From the NCBI RefSeq assembly GCF_000974785.1, contig NZ_BBWV01000002.1, positions 1-64,000 of the forward strand: 64,000 bases of DNA, given 5' to 3'. Positions within the stretch are counted from its first letter, which is position 1. The number at the start of each line of letters is the position of its first letter. Both the position numbers and the translations under genes were made by a program. Below, piece by piece: positions 2 to 9,638 of this stretch. The notes beneath the pieces are model-generated. The model made no database searches, had not been told where the DNA came from, and worked only from the letters and a program-made list of their open reading frames with translations. Source of the stretch: Flavihumibacter petaseus NBRC 106054 (GTDB lineage Bacteria > Bacteroidota > Bacteroidia > Chitinophagales > Chitinophagaceae).

Positions 2-1318
2 GTTCCGTTGCTGGGCCATCATACCAGCGGGGTCAGAAAAGAATTTTACCGCTCCGCTTCCGACCTGGCTAACGATGCACTCCGCGACCCGCTTCCTTTG
101 CTGGAACAAAAGCTTATTTCCGGGGGTATCGAACCCTGCACCCTTAAAAAGATCGATACCGAAGTGCAGGAGCAGGTAAAGGCCGCATTCCGGGAAGCCG
201 TTGCAGCGCCGGAACCGGATCCCGCAACGGTAGCGGACCATGTCTTCCTTCCCACCCCCGTCATCCATGAATCCGGCAACCGTGCCGGCAAGGGAACAGA
301 AAAGATCATGATGGTGGATGCGGCGTTGTTTGCCATCCGGGAAATCATGGAGACATGCCCGGAAGCAGTGTTGTACGGGCAGGATGTAGGCAGGACCCTC
401 GGCGGCGTCTTTCGGGAGGCTGCTACACTTGCAGACCGCTTCGGAGACCACCGGGTATTTAATACAGCCATCCAGGAAGCTTATATCATAGGCTCAACAG
501 TGGGCCTCGCAGCGGTGGGGCTGAAGCCGATCGTTGAAGTGCAGTTCGGAGACTATATCTATCCCGGGTTCAACCAGCTGGTCACCGAGATTTCCAAATC
601 CTGCTACCTGAGTGCCGGGAAATTTCCGGTGCAGGTGCTCATCCGCATTCCTGTCGGCGCTTATGGAGGCGGTGGCCCTTACCACAGCGGAAGTATTGAA
701 TCTACTTTACTGTCCATCAAAGGCATCAAGGTCATTTTTCCTTCCAATGCCGCAGATATGAAAGGACTCATGAAAGCGGCTTTTCTGGATCCGAATCCTG
801 TGGTGATGCTGGAACACAAAGGCCTTTACTGGAGTCGTGTTCCGGGAACCGATGGCGCCCGCATGCCGGAACCAGGTGCTGATTACATATTGCCGCTGGG
901 AAAAGCGATCATTTTGCAGCACGCTGATGAACAGCTGATCAATAACGGCGAAAGTTGTGTGGTGATCACCTACGGCATGGGTGTTTACTGGACACAGGCT
1001 GCTGCCCTTCAATTCCCCGGACAAATAGAGATCATCGACCTGCGATCCCTGTATCCGTTGGATGAAACCTTGCTGGAGGAACGCGTGAAACTGCATGGTA
1101 AATGTCTTATCCTGACGGAAGAACAACAGACCAATTCTTTTGCGGAAGCACTTGCCGGAAGAATCGCCAACAGTTGTTTTGCGCAACTTGATGCACCTGT
1201 ACAGGTGCTCGGCGCAAAAGATCTGCCTGCGGTTCCGATGAACAGAATCCTGGAAGCGGCCATGCTTCCGGATGCAAAAAAAGTGCAGCAGGCACTTGAA
1301 AAGTTGCTCCGTTATTAA
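2..1318 (+). CDS. 2-oxoacid dehydrogenase E1, fused alpha/beta (C-terminal part, truncated by window)
   Basis: This is the 3' part of a thiamine-diphosphate E1 component of a branched-chain or related 2-oxoacid dehydrogenase complex. The reading frame is open to the window edge, so the true start lies outside. The first ~60 residues look like the end of an E1 alpha subunit. From about residue 97 a complete E1 beta domain follows, with the beta-type YGQDVG motif, a GGGGPYHSGS segment, and a C-terminal transketolase-C domain with ITYGMG and LRSLYPLDE. Alpha and beta are therefore fused, as in the complete paralogue at 24891-27284. The two differ clearly in sequence, so they probably serve different substrates. 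The substrate cannot be told from sequence. Confidence 0.88.
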   Translation, partial: VPLLGHHTSGVRKEFYRSASDLANDALRDPLPLLEQKLISGGIEPCTLKKIDTEVQEQVKAAFREAVAAPEPDPATVADHVFLPTPVIHESGNRAGKGTEKIMMVDAALFAIREIMETCPEAVLYGQDVGRTLGGVFREAATLADRFGDHRVFNTAIQEAYIIGSTVGLAAVGLKPIVEVQFGDYIYPGFNQLVTEISKSCYLSAGKFPVQVLIRIPVGAYGGGGPYHSGSIESTLLSIKGIKVIFPSNAADMKGLMKAAFLDPNPVVMLEHKGLYWSRVPGTDGARMPEPGADYILPLGKAIILQHADEQLINNGESCVVITYGMGVYWTQAAALQFPGQIEIIDLRSLYPLDETLLEERVKLHGKCLILTEEQQTNSFAEALAGRIANSCFAQLDAPVQVLGAKDLPAVPMNRILEAAMLPDAKKVQQALEKLLRY

Positions 1319-1422: not shown

Positions 1423-2004
1423 ATGACCAACAGATTGCTTAAGGGAGCACATCTTTCAGAAAGAAAGTGCAGGGAGATCATTCACCTGTTTCGTGAGGAT
1501 CTCAACGCGACACAGATCGCGCACGTCACGCATGTCAGCCGCATTACTGTAAACAGCTACCTGAAAAAGATCCGGATGGCGATTGCAGCACACAACCTGC
1601 CCGCACAGTTAATCAACTCCCAGGATACAGTCAACGGACAGGAATCTCCACTGTTATATGGCGTTTTCAGAAACTATAAACGGATCCAGATTATTCCACT
1701 GCAGGGATATGAAATAGGGGCACTGGAAGAGATTCATCGCCTGTATCCTGAAATGCATGCAGTAATTGACTTCGGCAACTGGCGGTTGCACCGGCTCGAC
1801 AATAACCTGCACGCCAATGGCAGCCCTGCCATGGATGAAATCAGCGGTTTCTGGGGCTGGATAAAAAGCCGTTTGCAAAAGTTCAGGGGCCTTCACCGCA
1901 ACACTATTTACCTGCATGTAAAAGAATCGGAGTTCCGCTATAATCATCGGGATGATTCGATGGAAGATCATTTGCAGCGCTTACTCTTCGCAAATGACTA
2001 TTGA
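1423..2004 (+). CDS. IS1595-like transposase-derived HTH protein (copy 1), catalytically dead
   Basis: The 193-aa protein starts like IS1595/IS1016-group transposases. Residues ~8-52 form a helix-turn-helix region (LSERKCREI, then TQIAHVTHVSRITVNSYLK). It ends with the family's C-terminal signature: FWGWIKSRLQKFRGL at ~145-160, then YLHVKESEFRYNHR. The middle is shortened and rewritten. The DESYFG motif with the first catalytic Asp is gone, the HTDGW-type motif reads DFGNW, and the NGIENFWG-type motif reads DEISGFWG. Transposition activity is therefore very unlikely, but the frame is intact and both ends are well kept, which suggests selection for DNA binding. A paralogue sits at 7762-8412, beyond the SusC/SusD operon. 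I infer a domesticated regulator; no target is proven. Confidence 0.75.
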   Translation: MTNRLLKGAHLSERKCREIIHLFREDLNATQIAHVTHVSRITVNSYLKKIRMAIAAHNLPAQLINSQDTVNGQESPLLYGVFRNYKRIQIIPLQGYEIGALEEIHRLYPEMHAVIDFGNWRLHRLDNNLHANGSPAMDEISGFWGWIKSRLQKFRGLHRNTIYLHVKESEFRYNHRDDSMEDHLQRLLFANDY

Positions 2005-2006
2005 AA

Positions 2007-2027
2007 TTGACCGTTCATCTTTTCTTG
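2007..2027 (+). promoter_or_regulatory. Copy 2 of the TTGAC..TCATC motif
   Basis: The sequence TTGACCGTTCATC is followed by TTTTCTTG. Its right half, TTCATCTTTTC(T/C)TG, is shared almost exactly with the copy at 2149-2172. It starts two bases after the stop of the transposase-derived gene. Confidence 0.3.
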
Positions 2028-2048
2028 CTTCCACCCGTCACAGGATAA

Positions 2049-2067
2049 TTTATCAATTCATGATAAA
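2049..2067. promoter_or_regulatory. Perfect inverted repeat TTTATCA-N5-TGATAAA
   Basis: Two perfect 7-base arms are separated by ATTCA. The geometry (7-5-7) is that of a dimeric HTH operator. It lies 45 bases after the transposase-derived gene and ~260 bases before susC. A role as a binding site for that protein or another regulator is inference. Confidence 0.35.
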
Positions 2068-2148
2068 ATGTTTTGCTGATGTGCCATGAAATGCAGTGCC
2101 GACAAGGGTTTCGTAAATGATAGAGAACGTCATCTGTATTGTTTTCAA

Positions 2149-2172
2149 TTGCCGGCCATTCATCTTTTCCTG
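2149..2172 (+). promoter_or_regulatory. Copy 3 of the TTGnC..TCATC motif
   Basis: TTGCCGGCCATTCATC is followed by TTTTCCTG. It matches the copy at 2007-2027 best in its right half. Confidence 0.28.
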
Positions 2173-2242
2173 TTACCACTGATAAGCCATTTTCCTAAAG
2201 AGGGTTGAAAAGTTGAAAGCAATCACAATCCTCCAAATAATC

Positions 2243-2263
2243 TTGACCGGTCATCGTGCCCTG
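2243..2263 (+). promoter_or_regulatory. Copy 4 of the motif, containing palindrome TGACCGGTCA
   Basis: TTGACCGGTCATC is followed by GTGCCCTG. Bases 2244-2253 form a perfect 10-bp palindrome, the most symmetric of the four copies. It lies 63 bases ahead of the susC start, a suitable place for an activator or repressor site. Confidence 0.38.
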
Positions 2264-2325
2264 TAATAGCATGTTACCACCCTGTATGGTTCGGATAATT
2301 TTATCGTGTCAAAATTAACCACGCT

Positions 2326-5300
2326 ATGAAGAAGACGATCAGCATGCTGGTGTTGACCCTTGTCACAACAATTGTTTTTTCGCAGGGAAGAACAGTTTCA
2401 GGCCGGGTCACCGATGCGAAGTCCGGCAGTCCGCTTGCAGGTGTTTCTGTTTCCGTAAAGGACGGCACCCAGGCAACGCAAACCAATAATGATGGTGTAT
2501 ATACGCTGACAGGTGTTCCTGAAAATGCAAGACTGATATTCACGTTTATCAGTTACAAAAGTTTTGAGACACGCAATGCCGTCGGCACAAAAATGGATGT
2601 GACCCTCGAAGAGGAAGCCAGCCAGATGAATGAGGTAGTGGTCACTGCAAATGCGATCAAACGAGAAGCCCGCAGCCTGGGGTACGCTACCAGCACCATC
2701 AAGAATGACGAGCTCACCCGTAGCAAAGACAGAAGTGTATTGAATTCCCTGCAGGGTAAAGTGGCGGGCGTTCAGATTACCGGAAGCAGCGGCGGGGTGG
2801 GCAGCAGCACAAGGATCGTGTTCCGTGGCGGTACTTCCATGACAGGCAACAACCAGGCGTTGATGGTTGTAGATGGTATCCCGATCGACAACTCGCAGAT
2901 TGATGCCGGTGATAATCTGAATAACCAGGTAGATGCCGGTAACCGCGGAAATGACCTCAACCCGGATGATATTGAATCGGTGACAGTATTGAAGGGTCCT
3001 GCGGCTGCGGCATTATACGGTAGCCGTGCCTCAAACGGCGCTCTGATCATCACGACCAGGAGTGGTAAACTGAAAGGCGGAAAACGCTCTGAAGTATCAG
3101 TCAGCAGCGCCTATAACTTCGACAGTATTCTCCGCCTGCCGGAATTTCAGAATGAATATGGTCAGGGAGGAAAAAAAGAACCGGATTCAAGAGAGAACTT
3201 CAGCTGGGGGCCGAAGATGGATGGACAGATGCGGCCATGGGGACAACAGATCGGCGACTCCCAACTCGTGAAGCCCTATGGACCACTGCCAGATAATGTA
3301 AAGGAATTTTTCAATACCGGCCATACCTGGACCAATGCAGTAAGTTTCTCGCACAACAGTGATAATGCTGCGTATTTCATATCCTTCAACAACCTCGATC
3401 AGAAAGGCATCATGCCCGGAACGGAATACAAACGTACCTCCGTTCGCCTCGGGGTAAGTTCAGACCTCGGCCATAATTTTTACAGCAGCGCCAGCGTCAA
3501 TTATGTCCGCTCAGTTGGCGATCTCTCTACGCAGGGGCAGGGAAATTCACCCTACGACCAGGTGTTGCAGACGCCGAGAGATATTCCGCTTTTGGAGTTG
3601 AAAGATTATCACAATAAATACAACGACCTCTACGGATACTATGGCGCTTACACCGTTAACCCCTATTACTTTCTCGGGGAAGACTCCTACCGCACCACGA
3701 TGGACAGGCTGCTGGCTAATGTGCAGATCGGTTATAAACCCACAAAATGGCTTGATATCAACTACAGGATTGGTACGGATTTTTCAGCCGATAAGAGAAG
3801 GCAGATCGTTTCCAAACGTGTGATAACTGACCCCGACAACCAGAACTATCCCAGGAGGTTTTCAGGCAAGTATGAAGAGACGGCCATCAATATCCGGGAG
3901 CTTACTTCAGACCTGATGATCACCGGCAAGAGAAAACTGACCGATGATATTGGCCTGTCTGTATTACTGGGTCATAACGTGCGGCAACGCGATTTCAATT
4001 CACAGATCAGCACGGCAAACGGCCTGGTGGTGCCATTCGTATACAACCTGTCCAATTCGCTGAACCGCCCTACCACCAGTAACGAAATCATCAACCGCAG
4101 GCTCTGGGGTTTGTACGCCGACATCAACCTGACGTATAAGAATTACCTGTTCCTCGGCATCACTGCCCGCAACGACTGGTCCTCCACTTTGCCCGAAGGC
4201 GACAACAGTTTCTTCTACCCAAGTGCCAATGCCTCATTTGTATTCTCTGAACTGATGCCGGATCAGAAGGTACTGACTTATGGTAAACTCAGGGCCAGCA
4301 TTGCGCAGGTGGGTAACGATGCTCCACCTTATGTGTTGCGCACGGTATTCAAAAGTGGAGAGGTAGAAGATGGTTATGAAAATTCAAAAGTGGTGTTTCC
4401 GCTGAATAGTGTTCCGGGATATACGCTCGATGATGTGATCGGAAATCCAAACATCAAACCGGAGATCACCACATCCTTTGAGGTAGGTGTGGATCTGGGG
4501 TTCTTCCGTGACCGGCTTGCACTGGAAGCCACTTATTACAGCAATGAAAGCCGCGACCAGATCCTGACGGTTCCGATCGCTGCAACTTCAGGATATACGA
4601 GCCAGACGATGAATGCAGGTTCTATCACCAACAAGGGTATTGAACTGTTGCTCCGTGGCACTCCTGTGCGTACCAGGGATTTCAGCTGGGAGATCACGGG
4701 CACATTTACCAAAAATACCAGCAAGGTGAAATCACTTTTCCCGGGTGTGGAACAGATTGAACTGGGTGGATTTGTTGGTGCTACGCTCGTGGCCAAAGTG
4801 GGTGAACCCTATGGCTCATTCTTTGGTGCAGGATTTCTGCGCGACCCGGATGGAAACATTGTAGTGGATCCGAATACAGGCTACCCGATCACTGACCCCG
4901 TGGCAAAAACCCATGGCAATATCCAGCCCGACTTCCTGGCCAGCGTCAATAACAGTTTCAGTTACAAAGGCATCACCCTCAGCTTTTTGTTTGATGCGAA
5001 AAAAGGCGGTGTTTTCTATTCCCGCACGAAATCATTGCAGGAGTTTTTGGGTACTGATCCGCGTACCCTGCTGAATGACCGGGAGCCCTTTGTGATTGCC
5101 AATAGTGTCGTTCAGACTTCAGACGGAAAATTTGAGCCCAATACCAAAGCGGTGCTTGATGCACAGGATTACTGGACCAACTATGCATCCGACAACGCAG
5201 TCGAATCGCTGCTTGATGCCAGCTTTATCAAACTGCGTGAAGTAGCCGTCAGCTACAGGATCCCCAAAGCGTGGATCAAAACATGGCCGGTCAATTATAT

Positions 5301-5466
5301 CCAGGTAGGCCTTTCCGGAAGAAATCTTTTCCTGTGGACGCCTTCCGAGAATACCTATGCCGATCCCGAAACCAGTTCTTACGGTACGTCCAACATCCAG
5401 GGATTTGAATATGGTACCATACCCTCTATCAGGAGCTATGGTGCAAATCTTAAAGTTGTCTTTTAA
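2326..5466 (+). CDS. SusC/RagA-family TonB-linked outer-membrane transporter
   Basis: This is a 1046-aa TonB-dependent outer-membrane channel that imports large substrates together with its SusD partner. It has a signal peptide (residues ~1-20, ending at FSQG), a carboxypeptidase-regulatory-like domain (~23-105, starting TVSGRVTDAKSG), a plug domain (~115-250, with VVDGIPID, VLKGPAAAALYGSRASNGALIITT) and a beta-barrel to the C terminus, which ends in an aromatic-rich strand. The N-terminal STN domain used in anti-sigma signalling is absent, and no sigma/FecR genes adjoin, so control is probably by another route. The susD-like gene follows after 15 bases. No glycoside hydrolase or peptidase is present, so the substrate is unknown. 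Confidence 0.95.
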   Translation: MKKTISMLVLTLVTTIVFSQGRTVSGRVTDAKSGSPLAGVSVSVKDGTQATQTNNDGVYTLTGVPENARLIFTFISYKSFETRNAVGTKMDVTLEEEASQMNEVVVTANAIKREARSLGYATSTIKNDELTRSKDRSVLNSLQGKVAGVQITGSSGGVGSSTRIVFRGGTSMTGNNQALMVVDGIPIDNSQIDAGDNLNNQVDAGNRGNDLNPDDIESVTVLKGPAAAALYGSRASNGALIITTRSGKLKGGKRSEVSVSSAYNFDSILRLPEFQNEYGQGGKKEPDSRENFSWGPKMDGQMRPWGQQIGDSQLVKPYGPLPDNVKEFFNTGHTWTNAVSFSHNSDNAAYFISFNNLDQKGIMPGTEYKRTSVRLGVSSDLGHNFYSSASVNYVRSVGDLSTQGQGNSPYDQVLQTPRDIPLLELKDYHNKYNDLYGYYGAYTVNPYYFLGEDSYRTTMDRLLANVQIGYKPTKWLDINYRIGTDFSADKRRQIVSKRVITDPDNQNYPRRFSGKYEETAINIRELTSDLMITGKRKLTDDIGLSVLLGHNVRQRDFNSQISTANGLVVPFVYNLSNSLNRPTTSNEIINRRLWGLYADINLTYKNYLFLGITARNDWSSTLPEGDNSFFYPSANASFVFSELMPDQKVLTYGKLRASIAQVGNDAPPYVLRTVFKSGEVEDGYENSKVVFPLNSVPGYTLDDVIGNPNIKPEITTSFEVGVDLGFFRDRLALEATYYSNESRDQILTVPIAATSGYTSQTMNAGSITNKGIELLLRGTPVRTRDFSWEITGTFTKNTSKVKSLFPGVEQIELGGFVGATLVAKVGEPYGSFFGAGFLRDPDGNIVVDPNTGYPITDPVAKTHGNIQPDFLASVNNSFSYKGITLSFLFDAKKGGVFYSRTKSLQEFLGTDPRTLLNDREPFVIANSVVQTSDGKFEPNTKAVLDAQDYWTNYASDNAVESLLDASFIKLREVAVSYRIPKAWIKTWPVNYIQVGLSGRNLFLWTPSENTYADPETSSYGTSNIQGFEYGTIPSIRSYGANLKVVF

Positions 5467-5481
5467 CTCAATACCTGAGCT

Positions 5482-6972
5482 ATGAAATATACAATCAGCA
5501 AATGGCTAACTGCAGGCTTCCTGGTGGCAGGATTGAATGGTTGCACCAAAGATTATCTCGACATCAATGATGATCCCAATAATCCGACTGAGAGCAGCGT
5601 TGAGCTGGCACTCCCGACAGCACTGGGCTACAGCGCCTATAACCTTGGCAATGCTTACCAGATACTTGGCGGGCTTTGGGGCCAGTACTGGACACAGGGT
5701 CCGACCGCCAGCCAGTACCGGAGCCTGGATCAGTACTCTGTTACCAGCTCTGACTACGACCGTCAATGGGAAAGCGTTTATTCGGGACCGTTAGCGGACT
5801 TTCGTTATATCGTTGATGAAGGCACAAGAACCGGACAGGTGAACTATGTTGCTATCGGCAAGATCATGCAGGCTTACATGTTCCAGGTAATGACTGACCT
5901 GCAGGGCGATATACCGTTCAGTGAGTCGCTTAATGGTGCTGCCAATACCAAGCCGAAATTCGATACGCAGGAAGAGATCTACAATGGTCTTATCGTGTTG
6001 TTGGATGATGCGTTGGGAATGATCGACGAAGGCGCAGCATCGCCTGGTGATGACGACTATTTCTTTCATGGAGATATGCACCTGTGGACAAAGTTTGCAA
6101 ACACCCTCAAGTTGAAGATCTATCTCCGGCAGGCCTATGTTCGACCATCCGTGGCAGAGGCTGGCATCCGGGCGATGTATACTGCAGGCAGCGAATTTCT
6201 TGATATTGGGGAAGATGCCTACGTGCCTTTCAACAATGAGGTGTTTAACCAGAATCCGTTGTATGCGACCTATGAGGCACTGACCAGCGACAACCTGATC
6301 GCGAGCCGTACTATTGTGACATACCTGCAGGCAACTGCTGATCCGCGGATCGGTGTTTATTATGCAAGGGCAACTGCAGCACCGAATACCGGAAACTTTG
6401 TGGGTATCATCCAGGGAGAAGGACCAAATCTTCCGGGTGCACAAAATGCGAACAGTTATTCCAAACCGGGGCCTGCTGTCGGCGGGCCGGGCAGCACGGG
6501 TAATACTGGTGCCGCTGCACCGGTGTTCTTTATCAGCGCAGCAGAAAGCTATTTCCTCCAGGCAGAAGCTGTGGCGAGAGGATGGGGCGATGGTGATGCA
6601 CAATCGCTTTACGAGAACGGCATATTTGCTTCCTTTTATTTCTGGGGACTAAGTGAAGATGATTACAATGCATTTATCGGGGAACCGCTTGTAAAATTCC
6701 CGGTAAGTGGTGAGGAAGCACAGGTTCAGCAGATTATTACCCAGAAATGGGTAAGCCTTTCCGGCACTGAAAACCTTGAAGGCTGGACGGAATGGCGACG
6801 CACGGGTTATCCTTCGTTTTTTACCATCAGTACCACCAGCAGCATCGGCAATTTCTTTCCGGTACGCATACTGTATGCCGATTCGGAAGTGACCCGCAAT
6901 CCCAATACACCCTCACAGAAGACCGTGAAAGATAAAGTATGGTGGGACGTCAACACGAGCGGTCAGAATTAA
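5482..6972 (+). CDS. SusD/RagB-family substrate-binding lipoprotein
   Basis: This is a 496-aa surface lipoprotein that caps the SusC channel and binds substrate. A lipobox-like signal ends in LNGC at residue ~21, followed by TKDYLDINDDPNNPT, the usual start of SusD-like proteins. The rest resembles the SusD-like_2 type: a helical TPR-like scaffold, with ESYFLQAEAVARGW late in the protein and a C-terminal EGWTEWRRTGYP segment. It lies 15 bases after susC and 19 bases before the next lipoprotein gene, so the three form an operon. The ligand is not predictable; the proteins of this subfamily are not restricted to glycans. Confidence 0.93.
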   Translation: MKYTISKWLTAGFLVAGLNGCTKDYLDINDDPNNPTESSVELALPTALGYSAYNLGNAYQILGGLWGQYWTQGPTASQYRSLDQYSVTSSDYDRQWESVYSGPLADFRYIVDEGTRTGQVNYVAIGKIMQAYMFQVMTDLQGDIPFSESLNGAANTKPKFDTQEEIYNGLIVLLDDALGMIDEGAASPGDDDYFFHGDMHLWTKFANTLKLKIYLRQAYVRPSVAEAGIRAMYTAGSEFLDIGEDAYVPFNNEVFNQNPLYATYEALTSDNLIASRTIVTYLQATADPRIGVYYARATAAPNTGNFVGIIQGEGPNLPGAQNANSYSKPGPAVGGPGSTGNTGAAAPVFFISAAESYFLQAEAVARGWGDGDAQSLYENGIFASFYFWGLSEDDYNAFIGEPLVKFPVSGEEAQVQQIITQKWVSLSGTENLEGWTEWRRTGYPSFFTISTTSSIGNFFPVRILYADSEVTRNPNTPSQKTVKDKVWWDVNTSGQN

Positions 6973-6991
6973 CGATAAAAACATACCAATC

Positions 6992-7633
6992 ATGATGAAG
7001 CCTAAACTTGTCCTGATCGCGCTCACGATCGCCAGCCTGTTTGTTACATCCTGCGAAAAGGACGATACAGCGCATGTTTCCAAAGAAGTGTTGGTGAGTT
7101 ATCCCGGTATTGCACTCAACGGCGATGAGCTCATCATACTGCCGGTAGGGGGCACCTATACAGAAGAAGGTGCTGTGCTGACAGATGATATAACCGGTGA
7201 AACTTCAGCGCTGGCGCCAAGTTCCAGCGATGTCAATACTGCAGAACCCGGACTGTATATCGTGCTTTACACAGCCAGTAATGCCAATGGTTTCGAGACA
7301 CAGGTATCCAGGAAAGTAGCCGTTACCGATGTGACGAATACAGTAAACCGTGCGGGTGATTACCTGCGACCGGCTACCGGTATCGATATGACTATTGAAA
7401 AGGAGGCGGAAGGTGTTTACAAGATCACCAATCCCGGCGGTGCGGGAATCGGCACCGAAACAGTCATCTATATGGTAGAGACTGCTCCCAATGTGTACGT
7501 GGCACCTGAACAGCCTACCGATGTTGGAACGATGGCTTTGAGCAACATCGAGTTTGGTGAAGCAGGTGGCGTTACCTGGATCGTACTGAACGTAAATTAT
7601 GGGCCGGGACCTAGAGCATTTACCAAATTATGA
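6992..7633 (+). CDS. SusCD-associated lipoprotein with Ig-like (DUF5011/DUF5012-type) domains
   Basis: This 213-aa protein has a lipoprotein signal (residues 1-~21, LFVTSC) and a first Ig-like unit at ~30-110 with GTYTEEGAVLTDDITGE, typical of DUF5011/DUF5012 proteins. The rest (~115-213) is a second beta-rich part, with a short glycine-rich stretch near residue 150. Such small lipoproteins commonly follow susD and are taken to be surface accessory or binding proteins. It is the last gene of the SusCD operon. The family call is by pattern; the ligand is unknown. Confidence 0.7.
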   Translation: MMKPKLVLIALTIASLFVTSCEKDDTAHVSKEVLVSYPGIALNGDELIILPVGGTYTEEGAVLTDDITGETSALAPSSSDVNTAEPGLYIVLYTASNANGFETQVSRKVAVTDVTNTVNRAGDYLRPATGIDMTIEKEAEGVYKITNPGGAGIGTETVIYMVETAPNVYVAPEQPTDVGTMALSNIEFGEAGGVTWIVLNVNYGPGPRAFTKL

Positions 7634-7761
7634 CCGCCTAGATTTTAACACGGTTTATCCTCTAATTCTTCCACTGGTGTAGTTTATGTTTTTACTGCAC
7701 GGGGCTATGCTGATATTTAAGTCCGAATATTTTCGTAAACCATTGAACCAAACCAGTCCGG

Positions 7762-8412
7762 ATGAAAAATAGAATGCTCAAGGGAGCGCATCTATCCGAA
7801 CGCAAGTGCCGAGAGATTTTAAACCTGTTTTGTGAAGATCTGACTGCGACCCAGATAGCTGCCGTGACCCATGTAAGCCGTGTGACAGTAAACGCCTACC
7901 TGAAAATGATCAGGGTTCGGCTCGCCCAGTTTTGCGATGACGCCTTTCCGCTTCACCATTTACCCGGAAACCACCTGCTGCTGAAACATGCAACGGATGG
8001 CCTGCCCAAGACTTCATATTTTGGGTTTACGCGGTGGAATGGCCTGGTGTTTTCAACAGGGCTGGCCGACATGTCGAAAGACAGCCTGATTGAATGGCAG
8101 ACACAAAAAAATCTTGGCATCGACAGCAATATGACAGCCATTCATGCCGTTGCTGATTTTACCAATTGGCGCCTCTATCGGAAAGACATGATGAATGGCA
8201 GTGCCGGAAAATATGTTTCCGATGATATTTCCGGGTTCTGGGGACTGACCCGCAGCCGATTGATGAAATTCCGTGGCCTAAACCGCAATACCCTTTACCT
8301 GCACATCAAGGAATGTGAGTTCCGGTACAATCACCGTAATGAAGACATGCAGGCTAAACTTTTGGTAATGATCAACCGGCAACCGCTGCATGGCATGTTG
8401 TCTACAGCATAA
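7762..8412 (+). CDS. IS1595-like transposase-derived HTH protein (copy 2), catalytically dead
   Basis: This 216-aa protein is a paralogue of the one at 1423-2004. It shares the N-terminal block (LKGAHLSERKCREI, an HTH with TQIAAVTHVSRVTVNAYLK) and the C-terminal block (GFWGLTRSRLMKFRGL, YLHIKECEFRYNHRNEDM). It keeps more of the ancestor than copy 1. A remnant SYFGF is present at ~91, but the catalytic DES is replaced by KTS. The HTDGW-type motif reads FTNW, and the third catalytic position reads DDISGFWG. It is therefore not a working transposase. Both copies read in the same direction and lie on the two sides of the SusCD operon. I infer a retained DNA-binding role. Confidence 0.75.
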   Translation: MKNRMLKGAHLSERKCREILNLFCEDLTATQIAAVTHVSRVTVNAYLKMIRVRLAQFCDDAFPLHHLPGNHLLLKHATDGLPKTSYFGFTRWNGLVFSTGLADMSKDSLIEWQTQKNLGIDSNMTAIHAVADFTNWRLYRKDMMNGSAGKYVSDDISGFWGLTRSRLMKFRGLNRNTLYLHIKECEFRYNHRNEDMQAKLLVMINRQPLHGMLSTA

Positions 8413-8453
8413 AGTCTTTTTTTTCTCATGTGTGTATACGCGGGTAGTGTCTA

Positions 8454-9638
8454 CTACCTGCTTTTTTTTTCCTCCAACCGTTCAGCAAAACTTCCGCCCG
8501 CTCTTTGCAGCAGGTTTTCACCAAACCGGTTCTTGATGCTGTCTACTGCCTGGTAGAGCCTGACCTGAGCTGTGCTGTCATCAAACAGGCTGATCTGTTG
8601 ATTGCCGGGTATCAGGTGGGTGAACCGGATACCGAGTAACCTTACCAGCAGCCTCCGGTCATACAGCTGTTCAAAAAGTTGTGTTGCCTGCTGCAGCAAG
8701 GTATGATCGAGCGCCGTGTAGGCGATCGTGCGTTGTTTTGTGACGGTATCGAAGTTGGCATAGCGCAGCTTGACGGTGATGCAGCCGGTGAGCCGGTTTT
8801 GCTTACGCAATTCGAAGCCGATACTTTCAGTCATGCGCACCAGGCGGCTGTGCAGAAACTTCAGGTCGATGGTGTCTGAGGAAAAGGTCTGTTCCGTGGA
8901 GATGGACTTCTGATCATGATACGGTATTACGGGACTTTCATCGATGCCGTTGGCTTTCCTCGACAATTCGATGCCTGTCTTTCCCAGGAGGTTGAACATC
9001 ATCAGCATGGGGATTTCGCTGAGGGTACGCACGGTTTCGACGCCCATGCGCAACAGGAGTTGCCCGGTCTCCTTGCCGATGCCGGGCATTTTCTGAATGG
9101 TGAGGGGTGCGAGGAAGCGTTTTTCACCACCTGACGGCACTTCCAGCTGGCCGTTCGGTTTCACCTCGTTGGTGGCCACCTTGCTGATGAGTTTGTTGGT
9201 AGCCAGCGCCCAGGAGATGGGCAGACCTGTTTCACCGGTAATCGTCTGTTTCAGCTCGTCTGTGAAGCTGCGGCAACCGAAATGCCGGTCCATCCCGGTC
9301 AGGTCGAGATAAAATTCATCGATAGATGCTTTTTCGAAAACGGGCACGCGGTCGGAAATGATTTCGGTCACCAGGCGCGAGTAGTGCGAATAGCTTTCCA
9401 TGTCGCCGCTGATTACCAGGGCCTCGGGGCAAAGCCGGCGCGCCAGCTTCATCGGCATGGCGCTGTGTACGCCGAACCGACGCGCTTCATAACTCGCGGC
9501 AGTCACCACACCGCGGCCCCCGGACCCGCCAACAATCAGCGGCTTTCCGTTCAGCGCAGCATTCTTCAGGCGCTCAACGGAAACAAAAAAAGCGTCCAGG
9601 TCAAAATGCGCGATCTGCCTGGTAGTACCGGCTGCCAT
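8454..9638 (-). CDS. dinB: DNA polymerase IV (Y-family translesion polymerase)
   Basis: This 394-aa Y-family polymerase copies past damaged bases with low fidelity. Catalytic acids are D13 (HFDLDAFF) and D107/E108 (ASIDEFYLD). The steric-gate region is FFVSVE, a helix-hairpin-helix occurs at ~182-200 (KMPGIGKETGQLLL), and the little-finger domain follows. A clamp-binding QISLF sits at residues 348-352, so the protein should dock on the beta sliding clamp. Its start is 3 bases after the stop of the DnaE-type gene, so both are probably made from one transcript as a mutagenic repair pair. Confidence 0.93.
   Translation of the reverse strand: MAAGTTRQIAHFDLDAFFVSVERLKNAALNGKPLIVGGSGGRGVVTAASYEARRFGVHSAMPMKLARRLCPEALVISGDMESYSHYSRLVTEIISDRVPVFEKASIDEFYLDLTGMDRHFGCRSFTDELKQTITGETGLPISWALATNKLISKVATNEVKPNGQLEVPSGGEKRFLAPLTIQKMPGIGKETGQLLLRMGVETVRTLSEIPMLMMFNLLGKTGIELSRKANGIDESPVIPYHDQKSISTEQTFSSDTIDLKFLHSRLVRMTESIGFELRKQNRLTGCITVKLRYANFDTVTKQRTIAYTALDHTLLQQATQLFEQLYDRRLLVRLLGIRFTHLIPGNQQISLFDDSTAQVRLYQAVDSIKNRFGENLLQRAGGSFAERLEEKKSR

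What the first reader, a model, noticed from the sequence alone, without database searches (positions are those of the whole stretch)
1423..8412. Two dead IS1595-type transposase derivatives bracket a SusCD operon
Seen: two paralogous proteins (1423-2004 and 7762-8412) keep the N-terminal helix-turn-helix and the C-terminal FWG...KFRGL...YLHxKE(S/C)EFRYNHR block of IS1595/IS1016-group transposases. Both have lost the catalytic DES, HTDGW and NGIENFWG residues. They have the same orientation and lie on either side of an intact susC-susD-lipoprotein operon. Known: IS1595 transposases use a DDE/DDN core. Inference: they are domesticated DNA-binding proteins, possibly regulators of the operon, since no sigma/anti-sigma pair, AraC or two-component gene adjoins it. 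I know of no described SusCD regulator of this type.
Basis: partly seen in the sequence, partly recalled or inferred. Interest (0 to 1): 0.75.

Follow-up and report, generated by a model that had tools for sequence, protein, structure and literature searches.

The report
Transposase-derived regulators beside nutrient-uptake operons
Two neighbouring bacterial genes descend from a jumping-gene enzyme that lost its cutting activity; relatives kept intact by natural selection suggest it became a DNA-binding switch, perhaps for nearby nutrient-uptake genes, though this is not yet tested in the lab.

Summary
P1 (1423-2004) and P2 (7762-8412) are 48% identical, flank an intact susC-susD-Ig-lipoprotein operon and derive from IS1595/IS1016-type transposases. 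They are not relics. P genes occur in 14 of 15 genomes of the genus and 62 of 394 of the family, nearly always single-copy, with dN/dS 0.02-0.19 wherever it could be estimated (five genera). None of 69 keeps the three catalytic motifs together. No IS1595 transposase was found in 15 genus genomes.

The SusCD link is real but partial: 20 of 69 P genes are followed by a same-strand SusC, in 6 of 16 genera, with SusCs of several clades; 49 show none. SusCs like the window's also occur in many genomes without P. CWWGATWA is conserved in P promoters of eight genera, but not in the window's genus (1 of 17). CWWGATAA is in 11 of 11 P-SusC gaps outside genus g7, 4 of 9 in g7, and 8 of 43 unlinked SusC promoters.

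A separate core-less relative lies divergent from a TonB receptor-HmuY heme operon in 10 of 11 genomes; 18 transposase copies or fragments have no such neighbour.

Most likely these are exapted transposases working as local regulators of TonB-dependent uptake operons (domestication well supported, regulation inferred).

The parts
1423..2004 (+). P1: 193-aa core-less IS1595-type protein, fast-diverging paralogue linked to the SusCD operon
2005..2325 (.). P1-SusC gap; CATGATAA at 2059-2066 (+), CCATTCATC at 2156-2164 (+), CAAGATTA at about 2238-2245 (-): candidate operator sites
2326..5466 (+). SusC TonB-dependent transporter
   Evidence: clade
5482..6972 (+). SusD-like lipoprotein (PF12771)
6992..7633 (+). 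Ig-like lipoprotein (PF16403)
7722..7737 (+). Inverted repeat TCCGAA-N4-TTCGTA upstream of P2; the form TNCGAA-N4-TTCGTA recurs upstream of P genes in g1, g9, g28, g76 and one g25
7762..8412 (+). P2: 216-aa core-less IS1595-type protein, the copy conserved across the genus
8440..8461 (+). Terminator-like hairpin with T-run after P2; a similar one follows the P2 copies of L025 and L035 and the P genes of four g85 loci
8..1318 (+). Dehydrogenase E1 gene (part in window), the commonest upstream neighbour of P genes

Best explanation
P1 and P2 belong to a family of exapted IS1595/IS1016-type transposases. The catalytic motifs are lost, while the N-terminal helix-turn-helix and the C-terminal helical block are kept (shown). 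P2 is the old chromosomal copy, usually behind an E1 dehydrogenase gene; P1 is a paralogue placed before SusCD (shown). Inferred: the protein binds CWWGATWA-type sites in the promoter of a neighbouring TonB-dependent transporter operon and, in most other genera, in its own promoter, so that it regulates that operon and often itself. P1 would be the local SusCD regulator in this window. The effector and the sign of regulation are unknown.
For: Purifying selection and wide, nearly always single-copy occurrence. Three catalytic motifs together in 0 of 69. Intact parents exist elsewhere in the phylum with DES, HSDGW and NGIE. The next same-strand gene is SusC for 16 of 65 scorable P genes against 5 of 827 other genes in the same loci (not phylogenetically independent), over SusCs of several clades; the label needs at least 8 changes on the P tree. 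CWWGATWA at -140 to -100 in 39 of 68 P promoters, all or most P genes of g3, g7, g25, g28, g71, g76, g85, g100. CWWGATAA in 11/11 non-g7 P-SusC gaps, 22 hits against 1.4 in shuffles, versus 8 of 43 unlinked SusC promoters (9 hits, 4.4 in shuffles) and 8 of 48 P downstream regions without SusC. A 58-59 bp spaced pair occurs in the gaps of g85 and g100, whose SusCs are unrelated. A separate core-less family is divergent from TonB receptor-HmuY operons in 10 of 11 genomes.
Against: 49 of 69 P genes show no SusC behind them. In the window's genus CWWGATWA is at the P-promoter position in only 1 of 17, in neither P1 nor P2, and in none of g9, g10, g29, g36, g39, g65, g81. The nine g7 gaps carry CWWGATAA only in 4 (4 hits, 0.7 in shuffles). 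SusCs like the window's live without P in many genomes, and elsewhere than P in ten genomes that have both. Motifs were first seen by eye in the tested sequences, and the 11 gaps include four each from g1 and g85. P1 lacks the inverted repeat found before P2 and evolves fast. The f37 and f12 relatives show no TonB neighbour among the genes printed. No binding or expression data.
Confidence: 0.55

Rival explanations
1. P is a domesticated DNA-binding protein with a general or unrelated role. The SusCD operons next to it are passengers, because the region behind P is a breakpoint where islands often insert.
For: Upstream synteny (prs, rplY, pth, FAH, E1) is conserved in many genera while the downstream side varies; 49 of 69 P genes show no SusC next to them; similar SusCs live without P; P promoters of the window's genus lack the shared motif.
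Against: SusC-next rate 16/65 against 5/827; motif shared by P promoters of eight genera and non-g7 P-SusC gaps; heme-operon linkage of a separate family, 10 of 11.
Confidence: 0.31
2. P is a catalytically dead transposase kept as a brake on related insertion sequences: it occupies their ends without cutting.
For: The HTH is kept; the upstream element TCTAGTG resembles an intact IS end GGGTCTAGTG.
Against: No IS1595-type element to restrain in 15 of 15 genus genomes; deep conservation without it; transporter linkage unexplained.
Confidence: 0.06
3. Both genes are decaying transposase remnants.
For: Catalytic motifs lost; P1 shortened and divergent.
Against: dN/dS 0.02-0.19 wherever estimable; no stop inside any of the 21 matches listed in the genus; conserved promoter elements across genera; no IS-type ends around P1 or P2.
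Confidence: 0.03

Closest known systems
IS1595 family transposases, IS1016-like group with HTH start (intact copies in L239, L215, L223, L240; group name recalled)
   Same: N-terminal HTH and the C-terminal FW...KxxG...YLHxKExExRxN block; full-length similarity to annotated members
   Different: Catalytic motifs gone, nearly always one copy per genome, no IS-type ends, vertical synteny
TldR, TnpB-derived RNA-guided transcription factors (PMC13418256, search listing with start of abstract only)
   Same: Mobile-element protein turned into a bacterial transcription factor
   Different: TldR is RNA-guided (as that abstract says) and, from recall, derives from a nuclease; P is an HTH protein from a DDE transposase
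Known SusCD/PUL regulators: SusR, hybrid two-component systems, ECF sigma/anti-sigma (recalled; search listing, no paper read)
   Same: Local control of SusCD operons is the proposed role
   Different: None is transposase-derived as far as I know; no sensor or membrane part was seen in P
Core-less IS1595-type proteins beside TonB receptor-HmuY operons (L256-L266, found here)
   Same: Similar size, HTH and C-terminal block, catalytic loss, transporter neighbour
   Different: Separate group on the tree, divergent orientation, heme instead of SusCD operon

Membership tests
IS1595 family transposase | Catalytic motifs DES, DGW and NGIE | tested here: not met
   together in 0 of 69 P proteins; NGIE-type in 0, DGW in 2; DES Asp column D in 2 of 69 P, 0 of 11 heme-linked, 7 of 7 intact
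IS1595 family transposase | Score over the NCBIfam NF033547 cut-off (75 bits) | tested here: not met
   27.2 and 25.8 bits
IS1595 family transposase | Terminal inverted repeats / multi-copy mobility | tested here: not met
   two paralogues only in the genome; no GGGTC-type ends around P1 or P2; one perfect 10-nt pair (1321-1330/2307-2316) brackets P1, short enough to be chance
IS1595 family transposase | Homology over the whole length | tested here: met
   plasmid hits covering 86-99% of P2 in the 20 listed rows; alignment with intact copies
Transcription regulator with HTH | Helix-turn-helix domain | tested here: met
Transcription regulator with HTH | Binds promoter DNA and changes expression | not testable with these tools
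   needs gel shift, ChIP-seq, RNA-seq
SusCD-dedicated regulator | Gene regularly adjacent to SusCD | tested here: inconclusive
   20 of 69 P genes; enriched, 16/65 against 5/827, but not general

The most novel reading that the evidence does not exclude
In Bacteroidota, IS1595/IS1016-type transposases have been exapted more than once into single-copy regulators of TonB-dependent uptake operons (SusCD in one lineage, heme receptor-HmuY in another), and the operator in their own promoter descends from the left inverted repeat of the ancestral insertion sequence.
Probability: 0.28. Interest if true: 0.87.

Novelty: new variant of a known kind. Interest (0 to 1): 0.7.

Why it matters
SusCD and other TonB-dependent operons are the main nutrient gates of Bacteroidota, and some have no recognisable regulator beside them. 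A regulator class derived from a DDE transposase would fill part of that gap, would suggest that a bacterial transposase can be recruited repeatedly for the same job, and is directly testable with two small proteins and a 321-bp promoter.

Tried and rejected

SusC as obligate partner: after 13 genomes the P-linked SusC of g1/g7 looked unique to P loci; the 394-genome search overturned that, so I dropped it.

TNCGAA-N4-TTCGTA as a regulon motif: two to five places per genome, fewer than the reversed control in G000 and G041 and more in G002, G022 and G164; kept only as a conserved element before P.

CCATTCATC: more frequent in P-SusC gaps than in unlinked SusC promoters but chosen by eye; not relied on. 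CWWGACTA at -47/-48 of the heme-linked gene (8 of 11, one more at -88) may simply be a -35-like element.

Mended on checking: I had read the g7 gaps as showing no motif enrichment (one search shows 4 hits against 0.7 in shuffles), the first catalytic Asp as absent in 69 of 69 (67 of 69 in that column), and had not told that P promoters of the window's genus lack the motif. Because of the last I lowered the best explanation from 0.60 to 0.55, raised the passenger reading from 0.27 to 0.31 and lowered the novel case from 0.30 to 0.28. I also dropped the idea that the invariant Asp D132 is the old second catalytic Asp: in L106 and L084, which keep DGW, it stands before it.

Literature: searches gave listings with abstract starts (10 of 54 shown, 5 of 8); no paper was opened. 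Nothing in the listed titles and abstract starts describes an IS1595-derived regulator or a transposase-derived SusCD regulator. The library holds only open-licence papers.

Rows dropped: from the P tree the fragment L039; L040 (too short) and L128 (no hit) never entered. In one search two transposases with early stops (L213, L268). In the comparison the two loci of G937 (L272, L279), which hold one broken core-less gene and do show weak receptor matches, were set aside. The output was cut.
Full report
WHAT IS THERE. P1 (1423-2004, 193 aa) and P2 (7762-8412, 216 aa) lie on the + strand on either side of susC (2326-5466), susD (5482-6972) and an Ig-like lipoprotein gene (6992-7633). They are 48% identical and the only two copies in the 5.7-Mb assembly. 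Upstream is a dehydrogenase E1 gene, downstream dinB and dnaE-type genes on the other strand. I saw no AraC, sigma/anti-sigma or two-component gene next to the operon.

ORIGIN. Both proteins hit the NCBIfam IS1595 transposase model weakly, best in the C-terminal block. P2 matches IS1595-type transposases on plasmids; the 20 listed of 50 records cover 86-99% of it. Intact relatives occur in other Bacteroidota families with DES, HSDGW and NGIE motifs; the search reports nine places in one genome, several at contig ends. None of 69 P proteins has the three motifs together: NGIE-type in 0, DGW in 2 (L084, L106), a DE[ST] string in the middle region in 6 g71 proteins. Aligned with seven intact ones, the DES Asp column holds D in 2 of 69 and N of NGIE is D in 61 of 69, while FW is kept in 69 of 69. 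Fifteen genus sequences and one near relative share invariant residues mostly in the HTH (1-55) and the block 129-192.

NOT A RELIC. P genes are in 14 of 15 genomes of the genus, best copies 60-76% identical to P2, without stops; 13 of the 14 have a copy of the P2 clade, while the single copy of G005 groups with the SusC-linked copy of L025. In the family 62 of 394 genomes and 17 of 101 genera have a match, one of these a fragment; all but three genomes have one copy, and the only stop reported inside a match, in the P1 of G003, is that gene's own end. In the rest of the order matches were weak; other parts of the phylum hold stronger ones. Pairwise dN/dS (NG86): 0.02-0.05 for 15 close P2 pairs, 0.08-0.10 for 4 estimable of 28 wider P2 pairs, 0.04-0.10 for 36 pairs in g71, 0.03-0.10 for 10 in g85, 0.08-0.18 for 8 of 10 in g3, 0.02-0.07 for 5 of 28 in g7. 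Among P1-type genes 1 of 6 pairs was estimable (0.19). The other pairs were saturated; other genera were not tested. No IS1595 transposase was found in 15 of 15 genus genomes.

HISTORY. In most of the genus P2 stands directly behind E1 with no SusCD. Two P genes around SusCD occur in the window, F. solisilvae (L025) and G003 (L035). G005 (L036) has one P, before SusCD. On a 69-row tree the window's P1 groups with G003's on long branches, while P2 copies form one genus clade. P1 is therefore a paralogue that diverges fast; the inverted repeat before P2 is missing before the P1 copies of the window, L025 and L035.

LINK WITH SUSCD. Counting by hand, 20 of 69 P genes are followed by a same-strand SusC at 321-716 bp, in 6 of 16 genera (g1, g7, g25, g76, g85, g100). 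49 show none; in three of these (L030, L031, L121) the contig ends within 0.5 kb. A stricter automatic count gives 16 of 65 P genes (one a fragment) against 5 of 827 other genes of the same loci; two of the five look like spurious ORFs in the gaps. The Fisher p of 1.5e-15 ignores relatedness. The SusCs belong to several clades: g1, g25 and seven of nine g7 loci share one; g76, g85, g100 and two g7 loci have others. The SusC-next label needs at least 8 changes on the P tree. Against a dedicated partnership: a SusC matching the window's at E <= 1e-215 is in 67 of 394 genomes (two candidates scored per genome). Compared, it is P-adjacent in 12, elsewhere than P in 10, in one genome with only a P fragment, and in 44 genomes without a P match.

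CIS SITES. P promoters of many genera keep an order of elements: CWWGATWA near -110 to -130, TTCATCC, a T-rich block beginning CCG, and an inverted repeat just before the start. CWWGATWA lies at -140 to -100 in 39 of 68 P genes: g3 6/6, g7 7/9, g25 2/2, g28 6/6, g71 9/9, g76 1/1, g85 5/5, g100 2/2, but only 1 of 17 in the window's genus and 0 of 11 in seven other genera. CWWGATAA is in 11 of 11 P-SusC gaps outside g7 (22 hits; 1.4 expected from shuffles), in 4 of 9 g7 gaps (4 hits; 0.7), in 8 of 43 unlinked SusC promoters (9 hits; 4.4) and in 8 of 48 P downstream regions without SusC. The 11 gaps include four from g1 and four from g85, so they are not independent. A pair spaced 58-59 bp occurs once per genome in four g85 genomes, always in the P-SusC gap, in the g100 gap plus one other place, and not in G000; the pattern was taken from these gaps, so only its rarity elsewhere is new information. 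I first noticed the motif by eye in the same sequences, so the test is not blind.

A SECOND LINEAGE. Core-less relatives in families f43, f62 and f70 stand divergent from a TonB-dependent receptor followed by HmuY and, in the loci checked, HemS or CbiX genes; Pfam confirmed three receptors, three HmuY, one HemS and one CbiX. A search of 128 genomes gave 11 such genes, 10 with the receptor next door; 18 transposase copies or fragments in the same comparison had none, though several are copies in one genome or at contig ends. A further broken core-less gene (G937) with weak receptor matches was set aside. These proteins form a group apart from P (support 73; P itself 99), so catalytic loss may have happened twice, but the tree does not settle it. 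The intergenic region of most of them also carries a palindrome, about TTTAGAnTnAnTCTAAA, that resembles DtxR-type iron boxes (recalled). Core-less proteins of f37 and f12 show no such neighbour among the genes printed.

MECHANISM. Shown: descent, catalytic loss, purifying selection, promoter conservation, enriched adjacency. Inferred: DNA binding at CWWGATWA, control of the neighbouring transporter and, outside the window's genus, autoregulation. Intact IS ends read GGGTCTAGTG or GGGTCTTATG, and the P element on the same side reads AATCTAGTG or ATCTTGTA; the operator may descend from the old inverted repeat. This is suggestive only.

VERDICT. The proteins are domesticated, and the regulator idea is better supported than adjacency in one window could show, but SusCD control is not the family's general, proven role.

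Noticed in passing
L256-L265 intergenic regions: Palindrome of about TTTAGAnTnAnTCTAAA between the heme receptor and the core-less gene in most loci, resembling a DtxR-type iron box.
   Followed up: no
L239, L269, L273, L215, L267: Small intact IS elements have GGGTC ends and an inverted repeat right before the transposase start, as many P genes have before theirs.
   Followed up: partly
L137-L141, L252-L255: Core-less HTH proteins of 199-281 aa in family f12, some genomes with more than one match, no obvious transporter neighbour.
   Followed up: partly
L247, L248, L250, L251: f37 versions keep the Asp of the DES motif but have mostly lost HSDGW: possible intermediate stage.
   Followed up: no
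L086:9564-12292: In genus g65 the P gene is followed by a sugar-transporter-like ORF (recognised by eye) and a GH32 glycosidase.
   Followed up: no
window 8440-8461: Hairpin after P2 preceded by TTTTTCTCATGTG; a similar leader and hairpin occur behind the P genes of four g85 loci and behind the SusCD-Ig operon of L025.
   Followed up: partly
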